Shown here piece by piece: positions 8,400-60,734 of a stretch of 64,000 nucleotides of DNA. The translations under genes were made by a program, and so were the position numbers. Position 1 is the first letter of the stretch. Each line of letters opens with the position of its first letter. The stretch lies in NCBI RefSeq assembly GCF_018812025.1, contig NC_063054.1, forward strand, positions 38,007,396 through 38,071,395, read 5' to 3'. The notes below the pieces were generated by a model, which saw nothing but the letters and a program-made list of their open reading frames with translations, was not told the DNA's origin and made no database searches. This DNA comes from Megalobrama amblycephala. Lineage: Eukaryota; Chordata; Actinopteri; Cypriniformes; Xenocyprididae.

Positions 8400-9689
8400 A
8401 CCTCACATTTTTTACTTTTTCTCACAATTCCGACTTTATTTCAAGCAATTCCGAGTTCTTTCTTGCAAATCTGACTTTAAATCTCACAAATACGACTTTA
8501 TAACTCACAAATTCTGAGTTTATTTCTTGCAATTATGACTTCATATCTCAGAATTGTGACTTTATATCTCACAATTCCAAGTTTATTTCTTATAATTCTG
8601 AGATTATTTTTCGCAATTATGACTTTATTTTTTCGAAATTATGACTTTTTTTGTAGTTGCAAGAAAAAAGTCATAATTGCGAGAAATAAAGTCGGAATTC
8701 TGAGAAATAAAATCAGAATGGCAATAAAAATAAACTAGGAATTGCAAGAAAAAGTCAGAATTGCAAGTTATAAAGTCATATTTTCGAGAAATAAAATTGT
8801 GAGATAAACTATATCTCACAATTCCAAGTTTATTTCTCACAATTCTGAGTTTATTTTTTGCAATTCCGACTTTATTTCTCTAAATTATGACTTTATAACC
8901 TGCAATTCTAACTTTATTTCTTGCAATTCCAAGTTTACTGTATATCTCTGTTTATTTCTTGCAATTGTTTAATTGTTGCAATATCGCACAATTCCAAGTT
9001 TATACCTCGCAATTCTGACTTTATTTCTCAGAATTCCAACTTTATCGCAATTATGACTTTTTCTTCAATTCTTAGTTTATATCTCGCAATTCCAACTTTA
9101 TTTCTCAGAATTCCGACTTTATAACTCGCAATTAAGACTTTATTTTCGCAATTCTGAGTTTATCTCACAATTTTGACTTTATTTTTTGCAGTTCCGAGTT
9201 TATATCACGCAATTCCGACTTTATTTCTTGTGATTCTGACTTTATTTCTGGCAATTCTGACTTAATTTTTCGCAATTCAGAGTTTATATCTCACAATTCC
9301 GACTTTATATCTTGCAATTCAGACTTTCTTTCTTGCAATTCTGACCTTTTCTTGCAATTCTGACTTTATTTCTGGCAATTCTGACTTACTTTTTCGCAAT
9401 TCAGAGTTTATATCTCACAATTCCGACTTTATATCTTGCAATTCAGACTTTCTTTTTTGCAATTCTGACTTTATTTCTGGCAATTCTGACTTACTTTTTT
9501 TTCGCAATTCTGACTTTATTTCTGGCAATTCTGACTTACTTTTTCGCAATTCAGAGTTTATATCTCACAATTCCGACTTTATATCTTGCAATTCAGACTT
9601 TCTTTCTTGCAATTCTGACTTTTTCTTGCAATTCTGACTTTATTTCTGGCAATTCTGACTTACTTTTTCGCAATTCAGAGTTTATATCT
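8400..9689. repeat. ~21-bp tandem array, left part
   Basis: Units alternate between ttctgactttatttctggca and attcagagtttatatctcac. Higher-order blocks repeat, for example 9240-9360, 9370-9450 and 9535-9690. Around 8640-8800 the orientation flips (gcaagaaaaaagtcataatt), so an internal inverted repeat is present. Confidence 0.85.
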
Positions 9690-11221
9690 GGGCAATTCCA
9701 CGCAAATGTCATCTTTACCATGAAAAAAAAAAGTTTTTACCAAAAGCACAAAACCCTTTTTAAATTATCCATTTAGGTCTGTATTATACTGTATTAATGT
9801 GCTCTAACAGAAATTTTAAGAAAATTGCCATGTTTATCCACAATATATGTGGTAAGCAACAATGCTTAAATTACATTTTCAACCAACCATATTTCATGCT
9901 TTCAAAAAGGGATCAAAGACCACCCTTTTTTAAACTTTATTTTAACAGTAAGCGTTGTGCAGAAAGATGGAGGCATGCCTGAGAAATAAATACACTCATT
10001 TTGTCATAACAGCACTGCCTGATGAATTTATAAGGGCGGGAATAAAGAGGTCAAGACGCTTCAGTGCTCTGTCACGTCCGTAACGTTTTAAAGATTAAGT
10101 TTATGTCATATAACAATTATTTATGCAAATAACTTGAAACTTTATATGCAAAGCTAAATTATGTTTATGCTTATTAGGATAAACAATTCATTTCACTACG
10201 TTGCTCTGAACAACCATAAAAAGCGTTACGGACGTGACCGTTACGGACGCTACATATTAAATCCTTTGACTTTGCTTCTTTATTTTGCCATCATCTGTTT
10301 CAGGCTTACCATATCAGAACATATCCAATAATCGCAATACTCTTTGTGCTTTGTTAGTTTTAATATGAAAAAGGTTTAACTTTCAAATTCAGTCGATTTA
10401 TAACAAAATTTAAACCATAGATGTCGCTCTTTAATAGCTACGGCGCGTGACAGATTAGCTACTGCAGCGCCTCAGATCAAGCGGATCAGGCGCACACGAA
10501 CCGATCTTCTCTTCCTCTTGCAGGTTACAGAACGAAATATGAACATCAAAAGGTAGGCCTATATGATACAGTACAACTTCTAGAAGAGCATTGTGTCTCA
10601 TGGGACACTTCCCTCGGATGTCGCGTTTTTACCTGTTGGTTAAAAAATGAATAGCCTATTGATCACAATCCGCGCGATCAAGCTGATAAAATAAAAATAA
10701 TAGGATTGCAATAATTTTGACTTGAAATAAAGTTTGATCATTTTGACTCAAGGCTCCGCTTTAAACTGTTAAAACTAGCCGAAATCCGTGTGATCATTTA
10801 GACAAAACATGATTGCGATTGACAATAGTGTACGTCAATCGGTTCACCTGACTGTGTGGAAACATGCGATTTTAAACTGCTTTATGATAAACATTAATAT
10901 TTATCAATGTATTTTAGCAAGCAGTTCTGTAAGAACTCATGGTCTCTGAATTGATTCTTAAACAACGCACACGCTTGTCAACGTGAGAAATAGGTCTAAT
11001 CATGGGCGTACGGGACACCCCCGCAGCCCCCGCGGTGCGTGGGGGTCCCCACCCATATAGGCCCCGTCGCAGATTCACCTATTTATATGTAGCCTTTGCT
11101 TTTTTTTTTTTTTTGCTTTTTTTTTTTAGAACTGAACTCAGTTGACTAAATATGAAAATAAAGCATCCAACTGAAGCCCAAAAATGAAAGCAGAATATCA
11201 TAAAAAAAAAGGCTAGTGCTA

Positions 11222-12122: not shown

Positions 12123-14249
12123 AGATATTGCCCAAGCATATTTACCCCATCGCCAGCTCTGCTAATGGTCAGCTACCGGGATGGCTGAAGTACTTTTCCA
12201 TGCCTAGCCAATAAGTCTAGAGTTGTTTCTTTATTCTTTTACTATACATGAATTATCATGATGCACCGATCGAAATTACTGAAAATTTGCAGCCGAAACA
12301 GCAATTTACGCGCTTGTCTAGAAGGGAACCTTATATAGCCTACGCAAATTTGTCTAAATTAGAATTTAGACCAGCTAAAATATATTGTTAGACCAAAAAT
12401 ATCTTATCGATTAATTAAGTAATAAAGACATGTAATAAAGTAATAAAGAAATTAAAAAAAAAATAATAATAAAAAATACGTCTATTGCTTCAGCCTTATT
12501 CAAAGGCCGCGGAAACATGAGTTCGTTTCTTACGCAATCCATTCCACACCCGACGTTCATGGTTTTCTTCCCATTTATTAAATATAGGCAATTGGTTGAT
12601 GAAACATTGATTGAAATTAAGATACAATTTCTACAAAACGAAATTCACTTTAAAGAAAGACTTAATATAAAACAAAACTTAATGAAGTGGTCAAACTTAT
12701 GTCTGACCCGCTGCATGTCTCCCAACATTGCGTATCCGTCATGCTATTCAATTATCATAATCAACGAGATGAAATAAAAAAAAAAAAAAAAAAAAATAAT
12801 AATAATAATAATAGGCTATAGCCCACTATAAATATGAAACTAAATTTGCTACATTTTATCCCTCTGGCCGACGAACGCGCCTGCGCTTTCTGATGGATTT
12901 TTTCCTCATGACAGCTGAAACAACTGAAAACAGGCCTTCCCTCATTTTTGGCGATAGCCTATAGACTAGTGCAAGACTACAAATGGTCTACTTGTATTTG
13001 TGTACGCTCACAATAACAACAAACCATTGTACTTTTGTAAAATAAAATAAATAAATTAAAAAAACTGCGTGCGCTTTCAGCTGCCTCTCTACTAGAATCT
13101 TTCTGGAACGTCTCAGAAATTTTACTTAAACTCAGAGAATAATTGTAGCCTACCTAAAGAAAAAAAAACATTTTTCGATAAGAAATTCATAGGTCTGTTT
13201 TAAATAAGAGGCGATCTTTCCGCTGGAACGTGTTGTTTCTGAAATCATGGCCAGTGCTCGTTGCCGCTGTTATCAGTTCTCTTGGCGCTCGTGCACACGC
13301 GCAGTTTTCACACAGACAATCGAGCGTTTCGTTCTGGTAAAAGCACAAAACAAAATGCACACAACGTGTCCTTGCTCTTGATGTACAATCACTGATGAAC
13401 ACCTTTGGTTTTAATGAGTAAATAGCCTATAGTTATTCCTGCCTGCCGGTATTTAGTCTGCGATATCAAAATCACTAAACATTATAGCATATATACTAGC
13501 CTAATATTATTCAATAATAACATCAAATGTTATTAACCTTTATTTTTTCTAATCAAACCAGTTTCAGAACGTTTATAATACAGAAGGAACGCTGGAACAG
13601 AAACGTTAAAATACCGATTCTGCTCGGAGTGGAGTGATTTATTATTATTATTATTATTATTATTTCGTTTTTAAGCCCTGGTATAAAGTTTAGTAAAATG
13701 TTGATAAATTGTGCAGTCTTATACTGGTATCCCAGATTTCAATATTTGGTAGTTTAAATGCCTGCCTGAGGTCTCTGTGAAAGTTTTAAAGCAGTTTTAA
13801 AGCAGTCTCATGTGCCGCTTTCAGACCGGTCACGTCCGTAACGGAAAACTGTCACATCCGTAACGTTGTTTTTTCCTCATTTATGCGGACACGAAAAATG
13901 AAATACAATTATTATTTTATGCTCTGTGGAGAGCCAACCCTTCTTCATTAGGTGGGCAGTATTACTTTTGGTTTGCGCAATATAATTCGCAGAATTCTTA
14001 AAAAATATGTTGTCACCCAAAACTTAGTGACTTTTTTTGTCACGTCCGTAACGCTGTATATTTCCCTCATCTAAAATATAAAACAATTGTATAGACTGAC
14101 ATTTTTCTAATGTCTGGACTCCTTTAGTAAGGGATTATGAATATATAAATAGACGGTTTAATATGTTGCTATTAAATGCATTCTTTGAGCGTTTATATTT
14201 CAAGTTTTGACTCCAAATGTCACGTCCATAACGCTGGAATTGCCCATCT

Positions 14250-14990
14250 CACAATTCTGACTTTATATCTTGCAATTCAGACTTTCTTTCTTGCAATTCT
14301 GACCTTTTCTTGCAATTCTGACTTACTTTTTCGCAATTCAGAGTTTATATCTCACAATTCCGACTTTATATCTTGCAATTCAGACTTTCTTTCTTGCAAT
14401 TCTGACTTTTTCTTGCAATTCTGACTTTATTTCTGGCAATTCTGACTTACTTTTTCACAATTCAGAGTTTATATCTCACAATTCTGACTTTATATCTTGC
14501 AATTCAGACTTTCTTTCTTGCAATTCTGACCTTTTCTTGCAATTCTGACTTACTTTTTCGCAATTCAGAGTTTATATCTCACAATTCCGACTTTATATCT
14601 TGCAATTCAGACTTTCTTTTTTGCAATTCTGACCTTTTCTTGCAATTCTGACTTTATTTCAGGCAATTCTGACTTACTTTTTTCGCAATTCTGACTTTAT
14701 TTCTGGCAATTCTGACTTACTTTTTCGCAATTCAGAGTTTATATCTCACAATTCCGACTTTATATCTTGCAATTCAGACTTTCTTTCTTGCAATTCTGAT
14801 TTTATTTCTCACAATACTGAGTTTATGTCTTGCAATTCTGAGTTTATATCTCATAATTCAGACATTTTTTTCACATTTGCTAGTTTATATCTCAGTTCCG
14901 AGAAAAAATTTGCAAGAAATAAGACATACAAATTCGCAGTTTTGAATTTGAATTGCTAGATATAAACTAATTTTGAGATAAAGTGGAAGT
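14250..14990. repeat. ~21-bp tandem array, right part
   Basis: Continuation of the array at 8400-9689 beyond the nested element, with the same units (attctgactttatatcttgc, attcagactttctttcttgc). It fades towards the right terminal repeat near 14990-15034. Confidence 0.85.
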
Positions 14991-22770: not shown

Positions 22771-43171
<20,401 letters not shown>

Positions 43172-45955: not shown

Positions 45956-46563
45956 ACATACATACATATTTACATATTCAACAAACAAATATCTCTCTTC
46001 TAACTTTGTTTTGAGTTGTACACAGTCCATGTCTTTCAAAAGTCTCTCCTTGTAATCTCAGTCACAATCTGTTCCCATTGTATTTTTGTTGGGGCAATTT
46101 GCTGTTAGTAGAAACCTCAATAAATATTTATCACTGTTATTCACTGAATCCAGTATATCTCCAAGGAATAGAATATCCCATATCCCAGTCTGTAAAATCT
46201 CCTGCATAATTGTATGTATGTATATATAACACTTTTAAATCTAGGCAAGACCAAAAAATATGTACATGATCAGCTGATAATGTCCCAAATTGGCTCCAAC
46301 AAGATCCTTGATTTGTTACTCTTTTTTGTTTGTAGGAATAAGAAACTTATTGTATTTTTTCAACAGAATTCCCTTAAAGTTCTAGAATTTCTGGTCAAAC
46401 ACTGTGTGCTAGAGGTATGACTAATATATTTAAAGGGTGGAAACAACCAAGGAGGTGTTAGTTTTCTATATAAGGATATCAACAACTAAAGGTTGTGTTC
46501 CTGACCCCACACCACTTTTAACTCTTGATAAAATCCCTGTCCCTGTGTTCTTTCCTTTCACAT

Positions 46564-46596
46564 CCTTATTTGGATCTCTGTTACCCTCTATAAAAA
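46564..46596 (+). promoter_or_regulatory. Muscle-type promoter: CArG box and TATA box of the myosin gene
   Basis: CCTTATTTGG at 46564-46573 is a perfect CC(A/T)6GG serum response factor site, and TATAAAAA follows at 46589-46596, about 90 bases before the start codon. A second AT-rich box (CTATATAAGG) lies near 46469. The expected start of transcription is about 46620, leaving a leader of about 65 bases with one in-frame upstream ATG (46642). Sites are read by eye; activity is inferred. Confidence 0.6.
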
Positions 46597-46686: not shown

Positions 46687-49600
46687 ATGGGTGATGCTAT
46701 GATGGCAGAGTTCGGAAAGGCTGCTCCCTTCCTGAGGAAGTCGGATAAAGAGCGTCTCGAAGCTCAGACAAGAGCCTTTGACATCAAGACCGAATGCTTT
46801 GTTGTGGATGAAAAGGTGGAGTTTGTGAAGGGGCAAATTATCAGCAAGGACGGAGGCAAGGTGACTGTTAAAACTGAGGATGGGAGAACAGTGACCGTCA
46901 AGGACGGGGACGTCCATCCCCAGAACCCGCCTAAATTCGATAAAATCGAAGACATGGCGATGCTCACTTTCCTTCACGAGCCCGCAGTGCTGTTCAACCT
47001 CAAAGAGCGTTACGCAGCCTGGATGATCTACACCTACTCAGGGCTGTTCTGTGTCACGGTCAACCCTTACAAGTGGTTACCCGTGTACGACTCAGATGTA
47101 GTCTCTGCCTACAGAGGTAAGAAAAGAACAGAGGCCCCGCCTCACATCTTTTCCATCTCAGATAATGCTTATCAATACATGTTAACCGATCGGGAGAACC
47201 AATCTGTCCTTATCACTGGAGAATCCGGTGCCGGGAAGACTGTCAACACCAAGAGAGTCATTCAGTATTTTGCAAGCATTGCTGCCTCTGGTGGAGCGGC
47301 TGGAAAGAAAGACTCTAGCAAGGGAACCCTAGAGGATCAGATTATTCAGGCTAACCCTGCACTCGAGGCTTTTGGCAACGCTAAAACGGTCAGAAACGAC
47401 AACTCCTCTCGCTTTGGGAAATTCATCCGCATTCATTTTGCGACAAGCGGTAAACTTGCTTCAGCTGATATCGAAACATACCTGCTGGAGAAGTCTCGGG
47501 TGACCTTTCAGCTAAAATCTGAGAGGAACTACCATATTTTCTTTCAAATACTGTCCAATGAAAAGCCTGAACTGCTGGACATGCTGTTGATAACTAATAA
47601 TCCATATGACTACTCTTACATCTCCCAAGGAGAAGTAACCGTCGCTTCCATCAATGACAACGAGGAGCTGCTTGCTACCGACAAGGCATTTGATGTACTC
47701 GGCTTCACGTCAGAAGAAAAGATGGGAGTCTACAAGCTGACAGGTGCTATCATGCACTATGGCAATATGAAATTCAAACAGAAACAGCGTGAAGAGCAGG
47801 CAGAGCCTGACGGTACTGAAGATGCAGATAAGGCAGCGTATCTAATGGGGTTGAACTCTGCTGACCTGCTCAAAGGACTCTGCCATCCAAGGGTCAAAGT
47901 AGGCAATGAGTATGTAACAAAAGGACAGGGTGTGGACCAAGTGTATTACTCTGTTGGTGCACTGGCAAAGTCAGTGTATGAGAAAATGTTCAACTGGATG
48001 GTGGTAAGAATCAACCACTCCCTTGACACCAAGCAAAATCGTCAGTATTTCATTGGTGTGCTTGACATAGCAGGCTTTGAGATCTTCGATTTCAACACAT
48101 TTGAACAACTCTGCATCAATTTTACAAACGAAAAGCTGCAACAGTTTTTCAATCACCACATGTTTGTCCTGGAACAAGAGGAATATAAAAAAGAGGGAAT
48201 TGATTGGGAGTTTATTGACTTTGGGATGGATCTGCAAGCCTGCATTGATCTGATTGAGAAACCCCTTGGGATCATGTCCATTCTGGAGGAAGAGTGCATG
48301 TTTCCAAAGGCCAGCGATCAGACATTCAAAGCAAAGCTTTATGACAACCACCTGGGCAAGACAAACATTTTCCAGAAGCCACGAGTCGTGAAGGGAAAGG
48401 CAGAAGCACACTTTGCCTTATCCCACTATGCAGGTATTGTTGACTATAATATTGCCGGCTGGCTGGTGAAAAACAAAGACCCACTGAATGAAACAGTAGT
48501 TGGCCTCTATCAGAAGTCTTCTCTGAAGTTGTTGAGTCTTCTATTCTCAAGTTATGCAGGAGATGCTTCTGAAAAGTCAGGTGGGAAAGGGGCCAAGAAA
48601 AAGGGATCATCTTTTCAGACAGTGTCCGCCCTGCACAGGGAAAACCTTAACAAGTTAATGACCAATCTGAAAACCACACACCCACACTTTGTTCGCTGTT
48701 TAATTCCAAATGAGAGCAAGATTCCTGGAATTATGGATAACTGCCTGGTCATGCACCAGCTTCGCTGCAATGGCGTACTAGAGGGCATCAGGATTTGCAG
48801 AAAAGGATTCCCAAACAGAATCCTCTATGGAGATTTCAAACAGAGGTACAGAATCCTAAATGCATCTGCCATCCCAGAGGGCCAGTTCATTGAGAACAAG
48901 AAGAGTGCCGAGAAGCTGTTAGGGTCACTAGACATTGACCACACGCAATACAAATTTGGCCACACAAAAGTCTTTTTTAAAGCTGGCCTGCTTGGTACGT
49001 TAGAGGAGATGAGAGATGACCAACTTGCTCGTATCATCACTGGGATCCAAGCTTATGCTCGTGGATTACTGATGAGGGCCGAATACCAGAAACTGGTGGA
49101 GCGCAGAGATGCCCTCATGGTCATCCAGTGGAACCTTCGTTCCTTCCTCGGTGTGAAAAACTGGCCATGGATGAAATTATTCTTTAAGATAAAACCTTTG
49201 CTAAGGAGTGCTGAGTCTGAAAAGGAGATGGCAAACATGAAAGACGAATTCAGTAAGTTGAAGGAAGCTTTGGAAAAATCCGAGGCCAGGAGGAAAGAGT
49301 TGGAAGAGAAAATGGTCGGTCTGCTTCAAGAGAAGAATGACTTGTTCCTTCAGCTGCAATCAGAGCAAGACACCTTAACTGATGCCGAGGAACGATGTGA
49401 ACAGCTGATAAAAAGCAAGATCCAGCTAGAAGCCAAAGTGAAAGAGCTGTCAGAACGTATAGAGGATGAGGAAGAGATAAACGCAGACCTCACAGCCAAG
49501 AAACGCAAGTTGGAGGATGAATGCTCTGAGCTCAAGAAAGATATAGATGACCTGGAGCTAACACTGGCCAAGGTGGAAAAGGAAAAACACGCCACCGAGA

Positions 49601-52494
49601 ACAAAGTGAAGAATCTGACTGAGGAAATGGCATCCCTCGATGAAAACATAATGAAGCTCACCAAAGAGAAAAAAGCTCTACAAGAGGCTCACCAGCAAAC
49701 ACTGGATGACCTTCAAAGTGAGGAGGACAAAGTGAATACATTGACAAAAGCTAAAGCCAAGCTCGAACAACAGGTGGATGATCTTGAGGGCTCATTGGAA
49801 CAGGAAAAAAAAGTTAGGATGGACTTGGAGCGTAGCAAGAGAAAACTGGAAGGAGATGTAAAACTGACTCAGGAGAATGTAATGGATTTGGAGAATGACA
49901 AACAGCAGCTAGAGGAAAAACTTAAAAAGAAAGACTTTGAAATTAATCAGCTGAATGGAAAGGTTGAGGACGAGCAAATGGCTTCGGCGCAGTTGCAGAA
50001 AAAGCTAAAAGAAAATCAAGCTCGAATTGAAGAACTGGAGGAGGAGCTGGATGCGGAACGTGCAGCTCGTGCAAAGGTGGAGAAACAGCGATCTGATATT
50101 TCTCGAGAACTGGAAGACATCAGCGAGCGCCTGGAGGAGGCAGGTGGGGCAACATCTGCTCAGGTGGAACTCAGTAAAAAAAGGGAGGCTGAGTTTCAGA
50201 AGTTACGTAGGGACCTTGAGGAATCCACCCTTCAGCATGAGACCACTACTGCCTCTCTTCGGAAGAAGCATGCAGACAGTGTTGCTGAACTAGGGGAACA
50301 GATTGACAGTTTGCAAAGAGTCAAACAAAAGTTAGAGAAAGAAAAAGTTGAATTGAAGTTGGAATTGGATGACCTTTGCTCAAACATGGAGAGCATTGTT
50401 AAGGCCAAGGTAAATCTTGAAAAGATGTGCCGCTCCCTGGAAGATCAGATGAATGAGCACAGGTCAAAAGCTGAAGAAGCCCAGAGAGCTCTTAATGATC
50501 TGTCTACACAGAAAGCCAAACTGCTGACTGAAAACGGGGAACTTGGACGACAAATGGAGGAGAAGGAATGTCTGATTTCCCAACTCACTAGAGGAAAGAC
50601 TTCCTACACTCAGCAACTTGAAGATCTGAGGAGGCAGCTTGAGGAAGAGGTAAAAGCAAAAAATGCTCTTGCTCACGCTGTACAATCAGCCCGTCATGAT
50701 TGTGACTTACTGAGAGAGCAATTCGAAGAGGAACAAGAAGCAAAAGCTGAGCTCCAACGAGCCTTATCAAAGGCCAATACGGAGGTAGCAACATGGAGGG
50801 CGAGGTATGAGACTGACGGCATTCAGAGGACAGAGGAACTGGAGGAAGCCAAGAAGAAACTTGTTCAAAAATTGCAAGAAGCAGAGGATGCAGTGGAAGC
50901 AGTGAATGCAAAGTGTTCTTCTCTTGAGAAAACAAAACATAGGCTGCAAAATGAGATTGAAGATCTGATGCTAGACCTTGAACGGTCAAATGCAGCATCT
51001 GCTGCCCTGGACAAAAAACAGAGATCCTTTGACAAAGTCATTGCGGAGTGGAAACAAAAGTACGAAGAGTCACAATGCGAGCTTGAGGGAGCGCAAAAGG
51101 AAGCTCGCAGCTTAAGTACCGAGCTCTTTAAACTTAAGAATTCCTATGAGGAAACTCTAGATCACCTTGAGACCATCAAGAGGGAAAACAAGAACCTACA
51201 GGAGGAGATCTCTGACTTGTCGGATCAAGTGGGTGAAGGACGAAAGAGTGTTCATGAGTTGGAAAAACTAAGGAAACAGTTGGAACAGGAGAAAGCAGAG
51301 TTGCAGTCGGCACTAGAGGAAGCTGATGCTTCAGTTGAGCATGAAGAAGGTAAGATCCTACGAGCTCAGCTGGAGTTCAACCAGTTGAAGGCAGATTTTG
51401 AGCGTAAGATCGCTGAGAAGGATGAGGAAATGGAGCAAGCTAAAAGAAACTACCAACGCATGGTTGAATCCTTGCAGGCTTCTCTTGAGGCAGAGACGAG
51501 AAGTCGTAACGAAGCCTTGAGAGTTAAAAAGAAGATGGAGGGAGACCTTAATGAAATGGAAATTCAATTAAGCCAGGCCAACAGACAGGCATCTGATGCC
51601 CAAAAGCAGCTGAAGATGATCCAGTCATGCTTAAAAGACACTCAACTCCAGTTGGATGACACGCTTCACAGTAATGACGATCTCAAGGAAAACATTGCCC
51701 TGTTGGAGCGGAGAAACAACCTGATTCAAGCAGAGCTAGAGGAACTGAGAGCCGTGCTAGAACAGACGGAAAGGGTTCGCAAACTAGCAGAGCAAGAACT
51801 TACTGAATCAACTGAGAGGATGCAACTCTTGCACTCCCAAAACACTAGCCTTATCAACCAAAAGAAGAAGCAAGAATCAGATCTGCTTCAGCTGCAGAAT
51901 GAAATGGAGGAGCTGGTGCAAGAGAACCGCAATGCAGAAGAAAAGGCAAAGAAAGCCATCACTGATGCCGCCATGATGGCTGAGGAGTTAAAGAAAGAAC
52001 AAGACACTAGTGCACACCTTGAAAGGATGAAAAAGAACATGGAGCAGACCATCAAGGACCTACAGCACCGTCTTGATGAAGCCGAGCAAGTAGCAATGAA
52101 AGGAGGAAAGAAGCAGCTACAGAAAATGGAGGCACGTATCCGTGATCTTGAGAACGAGTTGGATGCAGAGCAAAAGCGAGGTTCGGAGTCCATTAAAGGT
52201 GTGAGGAAGTATGAGCGACGCATAAAGGAGCTGACTTACCAGACGGACGAGGATCGCAAAAACTTGGCAAGACTGCAGGACTTGGTGGACAAGCTACAAC
52301 TGAAAGTAAAATCTTACAAACGCTCTGCCGAGGAAGCCGAGGAACAGGCAAATGCCAACTTGGCTAAATTACGGAAACTTCAGCACGAGCTGGAAGAGGC
52401 AGAAGAACGTGCCGACATTGCAGAATCTCAAGTGAACAAACTGCGTGCTAAAACAAGAGATGGAGTACCTGGGAAGAAATCCCAGGATGAGTAA
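46687..52494 (+). CDS. Sarcomeric myosin heavy chain, cardiac/slow (MYH6/7-like) class, intronless
   Basis: One open frame of 1935 codons, the length of human MYH7. Seen: N-terminal [20 protein letters not shown]-loop GESGAGKT (178-185), switch [11 protein letters not shown] (from 237), switch II DIAGFE (460-465), actin-binding loop 2 with GKGAKKKG (from about 632), reactive-thiol helices [15 protein letters not shown] (Cys694, Cys704), two IQ-type light-chain sites ([25 protein letters not shown]), the head-rod junction WPWMKL, and a rod of about 1100 heptad-repeat residues ending [20 protein letters not shown]. This is a class II muscle motor that hydrolyses ATP and builds thick filaments. 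The MGDA start and the sequence in general favour the cardiac/slow class over fast skeletal MYHs. An in-frame ATG at 46642 would add 15 residues; 46687 is chosen because MGDA is the family start. Introns are wholly absent, pointing to retroposition or complete intron loss; no motif is broken. Specific paralogue not assigned. Confidence 0.96.
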
Positions 52495-52850
52495 TGTTTA
52501 GTCTCGAGTCGTTGTGCAATCACACCTAGATTTGTTTGTTCACTAGTTTTTTAGATTAGCACATCTACAAATATGGAAAATTCTGAAGCATTAAACATTA
52601 GTCAAAACATTACATGGGTCAAAGATGAGAAGTAGTAACCATTTTGGCGTCCCCATCAAATTAAATTGACTAAAGTGATTTTATATACATACAAAAAGAT
52701 TATATGCACTACTTTCATGTTTCAAATAACTTTCATGAAAATAAAATGTCAAAATATGGGTGAAATAAAGTGTAAAATTGTCATTCAGCGTAATGCTCCA
52801 GACTTTTATTTTACCATTAGATCTTTAAATAAACATAAAACACCATTTCT
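52495..52850 (+). other. 3' untranslated region of the intronless myosin gene
   Basis: AT-rich, apparently unique sequence after the stop codon, with AATAAA at 52764-52769 and again at 52828-52833. No long poly(A) tract that would mark a recent retrocopy is seen after either signal. Confidence 0.55.
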
Positions 52851-53640: not shown

Positions 53641-54925
53641 TAATAACGTGATGTCACGTATAACGATATAATATCTCCATATAACGGAAAAAAAAATTGT
53701 TTTGTGACATTATGTGAAAAATGTATCGTTTTAATGACATCTCGTTATTACGAAAAAACATTGTTTCAATGACAACATCTCGTTATTATGAGGAAAATAT
53801 ATAGTTTTAATGACAAATTATCTTATTAGGAAAAAAATATATTTTAATGACATCTTGTTATTACAAGGATATCGTTTTAACGACATTATCTCGTTATTGT
53901 GAAAAACAAGTTTTAATCTCGTTATTACGAGGAAAATATATTGTTTTAAAGAATTATCTCGTTATTTCGAAGAAACATCTACGGAAGAGGATTAGGGCCA
54001 AGCAATAATAAAAACAATAAAACCATCTCGAGATTAAAGTTGTTAAATTTCGAGAAAAAAGTCGAAATAAAATGTTGAGAATAAACTCGTTAAATTACGA
54101 GAAAAAAATGTCGTTAAATTTCGAGAAAAATGTCGAGATAAAATGTTGAGAATAAACTCGTTAAATTACGAGAAAAAAATTTGTTAAATTGAGAGAAAAA
54201 AGTTGAGATAAAATGTTGAGAATAAACTCATTAAATTACGAGAAAAAAGTCGTTAAATTACGAGAACAAATTCGTTAAATTATCATAAAAATGTTGTTAA
54301 ATTTCAAGAAAAAAGTCGAGATAAAATGTTGAGAATAAACTCGTTAAATTATGAGAAAAAACTCGTTAAATTTTGAGAAAAAAGTCGAGATAAAATGTTG
54401 AGAATAAACTTGATAAATTACGAGAAAAAAACTCCTTAAATTTCGAGAAAAAAGTTGAGCTAAAATGTTGAGAATAAAGTCATTAAATTACGAGAAAAAA
54501 GTCGTTAAATTACGAGAACAAATTCGTTAAATTATGATAAAAATGTCGTTGAATTTCGAGAAATAAGTCGAGATAAAATGTTGAGAATAAACTCATTAAA
54601 TTACGAGAAAATTAAATTATGAATTTGTTCTCATAATTTAACGACTTTTTTCAAATTTAACAACTTTAATCTCGAAATGGTTTTATTTTTCCGTAAACAT
54701 CTTTTTAAAGACATCTCATTACAAAAAAAACATTGTTTTAATGACAACATCTTGTTATTACAAGGAAAATATATAGTTTGACATCTCGTTATTATGAGGA
54801 AAATATCGTCTTAACATTATCTCATTATTACAAAAAAAACATTTTCAATGACACCTCGTTATTACGAGGAAATGTCATTTTAATGACAAAAATGTTTTAA
54901 CAGCATCTCATGAGAAAATATTTCA
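53640..54925. repeat. ~35-bp minisatellite (taatgacatctcgttattacgagga type), interrupted
   Basis: Units such as aatgacatctcgttattacg with gaggaaaatatatcgtttt run from about 53640 to 53980 and again from 54700 to 54925. The foldback element at 53981-54694 sits between the halves. Confidence 0.75.
53981..54694. mobile_element. Foldback element with tandem repeats, second copy of the 40987 family
   Basis: Left end ACGGAAGAGGATTAGGGCCA; right end ...ataatctcgaaatggttttatttttccgt, its complement with about 25 bases deleted. A perfect 8-bp duplication aaacatct lies at 53973-53980 and 54695-54702. The inside is a tandem of about 50-60 bp: ttaaatttcgagaaaaaagt, cgagataaaatgttgagaat, aaactcgttaaattacgag. 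Confidence 0.85.
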
Positions 54926-56064: not shown

Positions 56065-56931
56065 GGGTCATTCTGTGTCAAATCAAGCAATTTTCGGGAA
56101 ACTTCCCCGGCTCAAATTTTTGATTTTGTTAATATTTTCCCTGGAGAAAGACAAACATAAATAGCAATGAAAGCCAAAATATTAAACATCACAGATGTAT
56201 ATTTACTGAGTAATCCACTATTCTGTAGAGGGGGTCAAAATGACAGTTTTCACCAAATTAGAGGAGTGTAAAAATGACTTTAGAAAGATGGCAGCATCAT
56301 TATTTTATTTTTACACAGAGATTGGTAGATCTATTAGTAAAATCTGTTGACTTTATCAATCTTTGTTTCATTATATGCCAACAGTGACCGCTCAAAAATG
56401 GCAGAAAAGCACTTCTGGTGTTCTTTTCCTCAAGTTTGCATGTCTGTAACTCAAGAAGTTTTAAAGATATCTTAATATGCTTCTAGATTCACATTCTTAA
56501 TAAACTTTCCTTTTGAAATCTTCATTTTCGAGGCTCTATATAGTTCAGTCCAACAGATATGAGGATCTCAAAGCAGCTCCATGTTCAAATTGTTGATTTT
56601 TTCCTATTTTCAGTGATCGAAAGGCCATTTTTGAGCGGTCACCGTTGGCATATAATGAAACACAGATTGATAAAGTCAACAGATTTTACTAATAAATCTA
56701 CCAATCTCTGTGTAAAAATAAAATAATGATGCTGCCATCTTTCTAAAGTCATTTTTACACTCCTCTAATTTGCTCCAAATCTCAGGTGAAAATGGTCATT
56801 TTGACCCCCCTCTACAGAATAGTGGATTACTCAGTAAATATACATCTGTGTTGTTTAATATTTTGGATTTTATCGCTATTTATGTTTGTCTCGAGCCGAG
56901 GACCTCTGGTTGAGTTGACACGGAATGACCC
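56065..56931. mobile_element. Hairpin DNA transposon with GGGTCATTC ends
   Basis: Ends GGGTCATTCTGTGTCAAATC and, on the other strand, GGGTCATTCCGTGTCAACTC; attt on both sides (56061-56064, 56932-56935). Arms 56065-56409 and 56617-56931 are complementary over more than 300 bases, for example agattggtagatctattagt against actaataaatctaccaatct. The right arm lacks about 45 bases. No coding frame. Confidence 0.88.
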
Positions 56932-57438: not shown

Positions 57439-58203
57439 TCACAGGCTGGACGGCTGTGCTTGTTGCTGCAACGGCGCGTGATGAGGAGCCGTTTCGCAAT
57501 CTTTAGGAGCTTCGTCCGAGCGTACGTACAAAAGGAAGAGGGTGACCGTAGCGAACGTGGCGGCGTTGACCGGAAAAGCCCGGAGGAGAGTGGAAGTAAG
57601 TCCGCGCGTGAAAACTCGCCAGCCTTCGCGCTGGATGCTCTTCCTGGTGCAGTCCATGATGCTGCTGTACTGGTACTTTCCGCCCACTCCGTCGGCCTGC
57701 AGCCGAGACTTTATCACGTCCACGGGGTACGTGGAAAGCCAGGAGGCGATTCCCGACATGCCGCCGGCGAACAGCAGCTTGGGAATCATGTACGGGTCCT
57801 CCGGCTCGCAGCCCAGCGAGCGCGTCAGGAGGTCGTACGCGAGGAAGTAAACGCCGAAGCCCGGCGTCTCTCGGATCAGAGTCGTGACCATGCCGCGGTT
57901 GACGCCGCGCACGCCCTCGCGCTGGTAGATGCGCGCCAGGCAGTCCAGCGAGTTTTTGTAGACCTTCCGAGAGGACGACTTCTTCTCGCCCGTTCCCTGC
58001 ATCTGCATGCGGGTCTTGGCCAGCTCCATCGGGCAGCAGATCACACACTGGATGGCGCCGGCCGCCGCTCCGGCCAGGAACTGGTTCAGGGGCGTATCTT
58101 CGCCCAGCATGCGCATGGTGTTGCCCTGAACGCCGAAGACGATGGCGTTGATGAACGTCAGGCCCATCATGGGGGAACCAATGCCTTTATAAAGGCCAAA
58201 CAT
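57439..58203 (-). CDS. slc25a29: slc25a29 last coding exon (mitochondrial basic amino acid carrier)
   Basis: Codes for 254 residues from MFGLYKGIGSPMMGLTFINA to the C terminus QPSSL, stop at 57439-57441. It contains the rest of mitochondrial-carrier repeat 1 and all of repeats 2 and 3, with signatures PMELAKTR and PVDVIKSR. FGVQGNTMR, LNQFLAGAAAGAIQCVICCP and AFPVNAATFATVT are near identical to human SLC25A29 as remembered, including the QPSSL end. The family member imports arginine, lysine and ornithine across the inner mitochondrial membrane. The acceptor is ttttccgcag, complement of 58204-58213. The exon is strikingly GC-rich compared with its surroundings, which creates long spurious frames on both strands. 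The first Met is internal, in place of the Val of human 'ESVLGLYKG', so it is not the protein start. Confidence 0.95.
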   Translation of the reverse strand: MFGLYKGIGSPMMGLTFINAIVFGVQGNTMRMLGEDTPLNQFLAGAAAGAIQCVICCPMELAKTRMQMQGTGEKKSSSRKVYKNSLDCLARIYQREGVRGVNRGMVTTLIRETPGFGVYFLAYDLLTRSLGCEPEDPYMIPKLLFAGGMSGIASWLSTYPVDVIKSRLQADGVGGKYQYSSIMDCTRKSIQREGWRVFTRGLTSTLLRAFPVNAATFATVTLFLLYVRSDEAPKDCETAPHHAPLQQQAQPSSL

Positions 58204-58654: not shown

Positions 58655-59940
58655 TACTGTTCAAAAGTGGGTTTTTTTCTTCATTTTTTTTCATTTATTT
58701 GATCAAAAATACAGTAAAAATTATGAAATATTTTTACAATTTAAAACAGCTGTTTTTTATGTAAATATATAGTAAAGTATAATTTATTCCTGTGATCAAA
58801 GCTGGATTTATTTGATCAAAAATACAGTAAAAATTATGAAATATTTTTACAATTTAAAACAGCTGTTTTCTATGTGAATATATAGTAAAGTATAATTTAT
58901 TCCTGTGATCAAAGCTGAATTTATTTGATCAAAAATACAGTAAAAATTTGAAATATTATTACAATTTAAAATAATTTATTTCTATGTGAATATATAGTAA
59001 AGTATAATTTATTCCTGTGATCAAAGCTGCATTTATTTGATCAAAAATACAGTAAAAATTATGAAATATTTTTACAATTTAAAACAGCTGTTTTTTATGT
59101 GAATATATAGTAAAGTATAATTTATTCCTGTGATCAAAGCTGAATTTATTTGATCAAAAATACAGTAAAAATTTGAAATATTATTACAATTTTAAAAAAT
59201 CTTATTTCTATGTGAATATATAGTAAAATATAATTTATTCCTGTGATCAAAGCTGAATTTATTTGATCAAAAATACAGTAAAAATTTGAAATATTATTAC
59301 AATTTTAAAAAAATCTTATTTCTATGTGAATATATAGTAAAATATAATTGATTCCTGTAATCAAAGCTGAATTTATTTGATCAAAAATACAGTAAAAATT
59401 ATGAAATATTTTTACAATTTAAAACAGCTGTTTTCTATGTGAATATATAGTAAAGTATAATTTATTCCTGTGATCAAAGCTGAATTTATTTGATCAAAAA
59501 TACAGTAAAAATTTGAAATATTATTACAATTTAAAATAATTTATTTCTATGTGAATATATAGTAAAGTATAATTTATTCCTGTGATCAAAGCTGGATTTA
59601 TTTGATCAAAAATACAGTAAAAATTATGAAATATTTTTACAATTTAAAACAGCTGTTTTCTATGTGAATATATAGTAAAGTATAATTTATTCCTGTGATC
59701 AAAGCTGAATTTATTTGATCAAAAATACAGTAAAAATTTGAAATATTATTACAATTTAAAATAATTTATTTCTATGTGAATATATAGTAAAGTATAATTT
59801 ATTCCTGTGATCAAAGCTGGATTTATTTGATCAAAAATACAGTAAAAATGTGAAATATTATTACAATTTTAAAAAATCTTATTTCTATGTGAATATATAG
59901 TAAAATATAATTTATTCCTGTGATCAAAGCTGAATTTTCA
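58655..59940. repeat. Satellite-like tandem array, ~113-bp unit, about 11 copies
   Basis: The anchor caaagctg recurs at spacings of 112-114 bases (gctg at 58801, 58914, 59026, 59139, 59252, 59366, 59479, 59591, 59704, 59816, 59929). Two unit types alternate in part: one with tttaaaacagctgttttcta, the other with tttaaaataatttatttcta or ttttaaaaaatcttatttct. The unit is part of the arm of the 31718-32629 hairpin family, and the array runs into the rest of such an arm at 59930-60060. Confidence 0.92.
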
Positions 59941-60429: not shown

Positions 60430-60600
60430 TCAAGTCAGCTTTATTTCTATAGCGCTTTTCTACAAAAGCTTCACAGCATTAAACAGGAAAGTAACAGGAT
60501 TAATGATGCAAACATTAAATTATGAGACAGATTCAAACTGTGCTGTGAAGCAGCTGTAGGAAGATAATAGTGTCATTAATCAGTTCAGTGTTGAGCTCCT
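60430..60600. repeat. L2/SINE-type fragment beside the slc25a29 exon
   Basis: caagtcagctttatttctat, agcgcttttctacaaaagct and gctgtgaagcagctgtagga mark the same family as 25985-26330, ending about 50 bases from the 60651 exon. Confidence 0.6.
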
Positions 60601-60650
60601 AAAGATGCATCTAAAGAGAGGAATATAAAAACACTGAAGTTTCCACTCAC

Positions 60651-60734
60651 TGACTCCTGACGGATGATGGACTGGAAACAGTGATAAGTTCCTCGGTAAA
60701 GGGGTTTATCCACACTCTGGACCTGAAGTCGAAC
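60651..60734 (-). CDS. slc25a29: slc25a29 internal coding exon (carrier repeat 1)
   Basis: An 84-base exon too short for an ORF scan. It reads VRLQVQSVDKPLYRGTYHCF then QSIIRQES, matching human SLC25A29 'VRLQVQSVEKPQYRGTLHCF'. Acceptor cctgtag is the complement of 60735 onward; donor GTGAGT is the complement of 60645-60650; phase 0 on both sides. Joined to the 58203 exon it gives ...RQES|MFGLYKG. The roughly 26 residues before it (MALDFLAG...PFDTVK in human) were not found up to 64000, so coding exon 1 should lie beyond the window. The intron 58204-60650 holds a tandem array and other repeats. Confidence 0.92.

What the first reader, a model, noticed from the sequence alone, without database searches (positions are those of the whole stretch)
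46687..52494. Intact full-length sarcomeric myosin heavy chain in a single exon
Seen: 1935 codons, no intron, every motor, neck and rod hallmark present, length equal to MYH7. Known: sarcomeric MYH genes of vertebrates are split into several dozen exons. Inferred: a functional retrogene or total intron loss kept under selection, since 5.8 kb of open frame would not survive neutrally for long. An intronless copy also cannot carry the intronic microRNAs (miR-208/499 type) hosted by related MYH genes.
Basis: partly seen in the sequence, partly recalled or inferred. Interest (0 to 1): 0.85.

Follow-up and report, generated by a model that had tools for sequence, protein, structure and literature searches.

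The report
Intronless fish atrial myosin gene (myh6)
This is the ordinary atrial heart-muscle myosin gene of bony fishes (myh6), which is written in one uninterrupted piece instead of dozens, most likely because an ancient copy made from messenger RNA took over the job long before modern teleosts arose.

Summary
Window 46687-52494 is an intact 1935-codon sarcomeric myosin heavy chain in a single exon, with motor, neck and rod complete. It is not an odd new MYH copy. It is the fish atrial myosin heavy chain myh6 (amhc): about 95% identical to Danionella and Sinocyclocheilus MYH6, and inside a fully supported clade of teleost, bowfin and gar MYH6. Uninterrupted coding is old and partly documented. 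Li et al. 2007 picked myh6 as a long-exon marker in zebrafish and fugu and amplified it from genomic DNA, bowfin included. All four of their primers land here at exactly the coding positions in their names. One bichir MYH6 model shows signs of introns. In five teleosts myh6 lies on other contigs than MYH7-type genes. I infer one retroposition in an early ray-finned ancestor, whose copy replaced the intron-bearing atrial gene. In-place intron loss is the live rival. Nine paper searches did not show the retrogene reading in print. dN/dS, expression and full-length structure in other fish could not be tested. Interest is moderate.

The parts
46687..52494 (+). myh6 (atrial myosin heavy chain) coding sequence, single exon, 1935 codons plus stop
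46589..46595 (+). TATA box candidate TATAAAA, 98 bases before the ATG
   Evidence: TATAWAA 2 found (46467, 46589) against 0.12 expected in 300 bases; function not tested
46564..46573 (+). CArG (SRF-type) box CCTTATTTGG just upstream of the TATA box
   Evidence: 0.05 expected in 300 bases; one of ten motifs tried; function inferred
46453..46460 (+). T-box-like site AGGTGTTA
   Evidence: 0.06 expected; motif match only
46526..46531 (+). GATA-like site TGATAA
   Evidence: 1 found against 0.8 expected, so no more than chance
52740..52769 (+). candidate polyadenylation signals AATAAA (52740, 52764), two of nine AATAAA/ATTAAA words within 1 kb
   Evidence: not tested
36968..37132 (+). upstream neighbour: probable kinase-domain exon of pak6 (exon edges not set)
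   Evidence: Pkinase E 2.6e-5, below Pfam's cut-off score
43004..43168 (+). upstream neighbour: last coding exon of pak6
   Evidence: best PDB match PAK6 (2c30) E 5.6e-18; no Pfam match for the 55 residues alone
57442..58197 (-). downstream neighbour: main coding exon of slc25a29
60588..60734 (-). probable earlier coding exon of slc25a29 (VRLQVQSVDKPLYRGTYHCFQSIIRQES...)
   Evidence: open frame; assignment recalled, not searched

Best explanation
The feature is the cypriniform orthologue of fish myh6/amhc, the main myosin heavy chain of atrial muscle. Shown here: intact single-exon coding, clade membership, neighbours, and agreement with the zebrafish-based marker region. Inferred: an mRNA of an atrial-type MYH was reverse-transcribed and inserted between pak6 and slc25a29 in an ancestor of teleosts plus bowfin and gar, possibly earlier. 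The copy either came with or acquired a proximal muscle promoter (CArG box plus TATA box close to the ATG). It took over atrial expression, and the intron-bearing parent was lost in that lineage. Today the gene would be transcribed from the TATA promoter, need no splicing in its coding part, and yield the normal two-headed thick-filament motor of atrial myocytes.
For: Orthology: the nearest full-length relatives are fish MYH6 proteins (96% to 86% for nearly all; lowest listed 84%, Pseudoliparis), against 83-85% for MYH7-type. The ML tree of 48 rows puts the window with 11 other teleost sequences plus Amia and Atractosteus at 100/100; joining that clade with fish MYH7-type genes or with tetrapod MYH6/7 is rejected (AU p 0.005 and 0.0006; groups named after seeing the tree). 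Old uninterrupted coding: Li et al. 2007 (passages) took myh6 as an exon over 800 bp in zebrafish and fugu; ten of 15 markers gave a single product of predicted size from genomic DNA in 31 of 36 taxa, and Amia is among the 14 taxa sequenced for all ten. Primers F459, F507, R1322, R1325 sit here at coding positions 459, 507, 1322, 1325. New place: contig lengths of myh6 and MYH7-type proteins differ in the 5 teleosts where I found both, whereas three Erpetoichthys proteins (myosin-6-like, myosin-6, myosin-7) share the length 350268637. Intron-bearing relative: the Polypterus MYH6 model has a 21-residue insert between LIT and GESGAGKT and a replaced stretch near 1290-1320. Function: amhc is the predominant atrial isoform in zebrafish (PMC8783688, passages). 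No rod indel against a primate MYH7.
Against: The bichir gene is sister to the fish myh6 clade only at 79/42, so the parent is not firmly identified. A promoter so close to the ATG is easier to explain if the gene never moved. Full-length single-exon structure is seen directly only in this window; elsewhere only coding positions up to 1325 are supported. Some relatives' models have gaps that may hide introns or be annotation faults: Amia 8 residues at 1292, gar 10 at 1284 and 3 at 1746, Megalops 58 at 1016, Scleropages 28 at 1091. No transcript or dN/dS data. PMC8783688 itself regards vmhc, not amhc, as the MYH6 homologue, by its tandem position.
Confidence: 0.8

Rival explanations
1. In-place total intron loss: the gene always lay between pak6 and slc25a29 and its introns were removed by recombination with its own cDNA, which keeps the native promoter.
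For: A TATA box and a CArG box stand within 125 bases of the ATG, unusual for a copy that lost its promoter; linkage to slc25a29 is seen in several teleosts.
Against: All introns (dozens in MYH genes, recalled) would have to go, those near both ends included. Teleost hatching enzyme genes are a case of retrocopies that kept their promoter (PMC6385490, abstract).
Confidence: 0.15
2. A recent, lineage-specific retrocopy of another MYH gene, additional to a normal intron-bearing myh6 in this fish.
For: Intact frame with no decay.
Against: The protein groups with MYH6 of other cypriniforms and not with MYH7-type genes. In Danionella the myh6 and slc25a29 proteins carry locus tags five apart on contigs of equal length. 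Marker primers match at exact positions. No whole-genome check for a second copy could be made.
Confidence: 0.02
3. Assembly artefact or cDNA contamination.
For: None found.
Against: The flanks run on into pak6, repeats and slc25a29, and a TATA/CArG promoter lies upstream. The corresponding uninterrupted region was amplified from genomic DNA of other fishes.
Confidence: 0.01
4. An unexpressed processed pseudogene that happens to be intact.
For: Intronless structure.
Against: No stop in 1935 codons and no rod indel; motor motifs intact; zebrafish amhc is the main atrial myosin.
Confidence: 0.01

Closest known systems
Fish myh6 / amhc (zebrafish weak atrium gene)
   Same: Protein family, clade, length, marker primer sites at exact coding positions, slc25a29 linkage in several species
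   Different: Nothing found that sets this copy apart; the species is not identified beyond a probable cypriniform
Mammalian MYH6 and MYH7
   Same: Domain plan, 1934-1935 aligned positions, 83-84% identity
   Different: Tandem pair on one chromosome (PMC8783688, passage), several dozen exons and intronic miR-208 (recalled); the fish gene here is intronless
Bichir myosin-6-like (P0051 Erpetoichthys, P0122 Polypterus)
   Same: 85-86% identical; weakly sister to the fish myh6 clade
   Different: The Polypterus model shows intron-like remnants (the Erpetoichthys model does not show them); in Erpetoichthys its contig length equals that of MYH7-type proteins
Teleost intronless rhodopsin
   Same: Gene whose visual role is held by an ancient retrocopy in ray-finned fish, dated after the Polypteriformes branched (PMC11461388, abstract)
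   Different: There the intron-bearing parent survives as a pineal opsin; here no surviving parent was identified outside bichirs, and none was searched for in genomes
Teleost intronless hatching enzyme genes
   Same: Intron-less copies that moved and kept their promoter (PMC6385490, abstract)
   Different: A protease gene family that moved several times; not a sarcomere gene

Membership tests
Sarcomeric class II myosin heavy chain | Myosin N-terminal, motor and full tail domains | tested here: met
Sarcomeric class II myosin heavy chain | Rod of fixed length without indels | tested here: met
   against P0138
Fish myh6/amhc | Falls in the fish myh6 clade | tested here: met
   100/100, 14 rows of 48
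Fish myh6/amhc | Contains the published myh6 marker region at the published positions | tested here: met
   4 of 4 primers, with 0, 3, 1 and 1 mismatches
Fish myh6/amhc | Atrial expression | not testable with these tools
   no RNA data held
Fish myh6/amhc | slc25a29 linkage | tested here: met
   met in this window; in relatives 7 of 15 species by equal contig length, 8 not
Functional retrogene | No introns in the coding part while relatives have them | tested here: met
   for the window; for relatives only indirect: intron-like remnants in the Polypterus model and a 13th exon of zebrafish vmhcl
Functional retrogene | Different place from the parent | tested here: inconclusive
   contig lengths only
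Functional retrogene | Poly-A tract and target-site duplication | not tested
   not expected to survive at this age
Functional retrogene | dN/dS below 1 | not testable with these tools
   no DNA of any relative could be fetched (genome search did not complete)

The most novel reading that the evidence does not exclude
In a stem lineage of teleosts plus holosteans, or earlier, the atrial myosin gene was wholly replaced by its own retrocopy, perhaps inserted with its proximal CArG/TATA promoter. The atrial motor of about half of all vertebrate species (share recalled) would then be a 5.8-kb intronless retrogene, free of splicing and of intronic myomiR coupling.
Probability: 0.5. Interest if true: 0.55.

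Novelty: new member of a known kind. Interest (0 to 1): 0.38.

Why it matters
If confirmed, a very long intronless gene that serves a vertebrate organ would be a retrogene that displaced its parent, a second case beside rhodopsin in the same fish lineage. It would let one ask directly whether a giant, highly expressed sarcomere gene needs introns for expression, export or miRNA coupling, by comparing fish myh6 with the multi-exon vmhc and vmhcl in the same heart. It also warns that MYH6 comparisons between fish and mammals may not be of plain orthologues at the same locus.

Tried and rejected
Recent extra copy, pseudogene and assembly artefact were considered and rejected (see rivals). The ideas that the gene derives from within the fish MYH7-type group, or forms a clade with tetrapod MYH6/7, were tested and rejected by AU tests. 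A hunt for DNA of relatives to compute dN/dS failed: 7 and 15 pattern matches in viral contigs and genome contigs, none a relative by tblastn, and the genome search on the window's own assembly did not complete. Papers were searched nine times for a statement that fish myh6 is intronless or a retrogene; none was seen in the listings or in the passages opened. Absence from this open-licence library is weak evidence. The zebrafish retrogene survey (PMC3091775) and the sea bass single-exon survey (PMC8207432) do not contain 'myosin' or 'myh' in their main text; their supplements were not open to me. Promoter motifs: of ten tried, GATA (1 against 0.8) and nuclear-receptor half sites (1 against 0.47 for the two patterns together) do not stand out, and MEF2, NKX2-5 and M-CAT were not found.
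Full report
What is there. The stretch 46687-52494 on the plus strand is one open frame of 1935 codons and a stop. It carries Myosin_N, Myosin_head and Myosin_tail_1 over nearly its whole length, and the motor and neck motifs are intact (their roles are recalled). In a global alignment to a primate MYH7 (P0138) the target has one extra residue after 207 and two near the C-terminus and there is no other gap, so the rod of about 1,090 residues has none. The other five frames have 66 to 152 stops, and 200 dinucleotide shuffles never gave an open run above 184 codons. Codon-position GC is 0.56, 0.30 and 0.51, against 0.31 in both flanks, as one would expect of a coding stretch kept by selection.

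Which gene it is. By bit score the top rows of the protein search are long, apparently fused models (P0002-P0012). Among models of ordinary length the nearest are fish MYH6: Sinocyclocheilus 96%, Danionella 95%, Colossoma 92%, Denticeps 91%, eel 90%, cichlid 89%, bowfin 88%, gar 87%; a shortened Leuciscus model gives 91%, and the lowest listed fish myosin-6 outside the MYH7-type group is Pseudoliparis at 84%. MYH7-type proteins stand at 83-85% (best 120 of 7990 listed). Global alignment gives 95.3% and 95.2% for Danionella and Sinocyclocheilus. A careful ML tree of 48 hand-picked rows (LG+G4, no mixture) puts the window in a clade of 12 teleost (window included), one bowfin and one gar sequence (100/100), apart from 22 ray-finned MYH7-type and slow sequences. 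Several of those 22 are labelled myosin-6 or MYH6 by their sources (Erpetoichthys P0060, Acipenser P0078, Polyodon P0073, Larimichthys P0079), so names alone mislead. Joining the myh6 clade to the 22, or to six tetrapod MYH6/7 sequences, costs 60.6 and 58.6 log-likelihood units and is rejected (AU p 0.0049 and 0.00064; the groups were named after the tree was seen). The two bichir sequences P0051 and P0122 are sister at only 79/42.

Is the single exon known and old? Li et al. 2007 (PMC1838417, passages read) screened zebrafish and fugu for single-copy exons over 800 bp and chose myh6 among them, with zebrafish exon ENSDARE00000025410. Ten of 15 markers tested, myh6 being one of the ten tabulated, gave a single product of predicted size from genomic DNA in 31 of 36 taxa, and 14 taxa including Amia were sequenced for all ten. 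Their four myh6 primers match this window with 0, 3, 1 and 1 mismatches at coding positions 459, 507, 1325 and 1322, exactly the numbers in their names. This implies that the zebrafish exon starts at the ATG and runs at least to 1325 without an interruption. A later study lists myh6 data for 45 of 61 species (PMC3682800, passages and one section). Paddlefish and shortnose gar were newly sequenced there. The 16 species without data include both bichirs and two sturgeons, but also eight teleosts, so absence says little; entries taken from databases include tetrapods and are no proof of a single exon. So uninterrupted coding of myh6 is implicit in print for teleosts and bowfin over that part. Nine paper searches did not show a paper that calls it intronless over its full length or a retrogene.

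How it came to be. Two facts point to a move. First, in the five teleosts where I found both kinds in the lists (Colossoma, Anguilla anguilla, Conger, Synaphobranchus, Aldrovandia; the last only in scaffolds) myh6 and MYH7-type proteins carry different contig lengths, while in Erpetoichthys the myosin-6-like, myosin-6 and myosin-7 proteins all carry 350268637. Second, the Polypterus MYH6 model contains a 21-residue insert between LIT and GESGAGKT and a replaced stretch near residue 1290-1320, the look of mis-spliced introns; its near twin in Erpetoichthys lacks both. On the neighbourhood, 7 of 15 fishes with both proteins listed have myh6 and SLC25A29 on contigs of equal length (Danionella, Denticeps, Engraulis, Sardina, Syngnathus scovelli, Hypomesus, Megalops). 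Eight do not (Trichomycterus, Anguilla, Conger, Aldrovandia, Atractosteus, Channa, Gadus, Ameca), perhaps in part because of small scaffolds, different assemblies or a second SLC25A29 copy, as seen in Denticeps. Equal length is a stand-in for the same contig. I prefer retroposition followed by loss of the parent. In-place loss of all introns is the rival.

How it works. Zebrafish amhc is the predominant atrial myosin, and amhc, vmhc and vmhcl together make more than 99% of heart myosin heavy chain transcripts; vmhcl and vmhc lie in tandem on chromosome 2, and the paper speaks of a 13th exon of vmhcl (PMC8783688, passages). Its authors take vmhc rather than amhc as the MYH6 homologue because of that tandem. 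Another paper states that teleost orthologues of MYH6 are atrial (PMC6558913, passages). Rockfish MYH6, 1934 aa, is highest in heart (PMC8228858, passages). Upstream of the ATG here stand a CArG box (46564), a TATA box (46589) and a T-box-like site (46453), each expected less than 0.15 times in 300 bases by chance, out of ten motifs tried. Transcription from there would give a short leader and an mRNA that needs no splicing in its coding part. No Rfam family reaches its gathering score in the window, so no miR-208 or miR-499 was found. These steps are inferred from orthology and motifs.

Limits. No DNA of a relative could be fetched (seven unanswered genome-search runs), so dN/dS, a second myh6 copy in this genome and exon structures elsewhere are untested. 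Models of some relatives have gaps against the window: Amia 8 residues at 1292, gar 10 at 1284 and 3 at 1746, Megalops 58 at 1016, Scleropages 28 at 1091. These may be annotation noise or leftover introns. The parallel with teleost rhodopsin (retroduplication after the Polypteriformes branched; PMC11461388, abstract) is an analogy.

Verdict. A real, very probably functional, well-known gene with an unusual and little-discussed structure, shared by many fishes at least in its first 1.3 kb.

Noticed in passing
40989-42806 and 53983-54690: A 1.8-kb element with 19-bp perfect inverted ends (GGAAGAGGATTAGGGCCAA) filled with a 269-bp tandem array lies upstream of myh6, and a related array with one such end lies downstream; looks like a non-autonomous DNA transposon.
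   Followed up: partly
38310-40355: Open frame with a reverse transcriptase domain (Pfam RVT_1 in 38439-40355), a LINE-like insertion between two pak6 exons.
   Followed up: partly
27578-30129: About 2.5 kb of imperfect GCA/CAG-type trinucleotide repeat, which makes a spurious 777-codon leucine-rich frame on the minus strand.
   Followed up: no
58693-59937: Eleven tandem copies of a 113-bp unit at 93% match, between two slc25a29 exons.
   Followed up: no
56149-56891: Large imperfect palindrome: inverted arms of 156 and 86 bases at 95-96% complementarity, likely a transposon remnant.
   Followed up: no
8810-9698 and 14246-14863: Two arrays of a very similar 21-bp unit (TATTTCTCGCAATTCTGACTT type) about 4.5 kb apart.
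   Followed up: no
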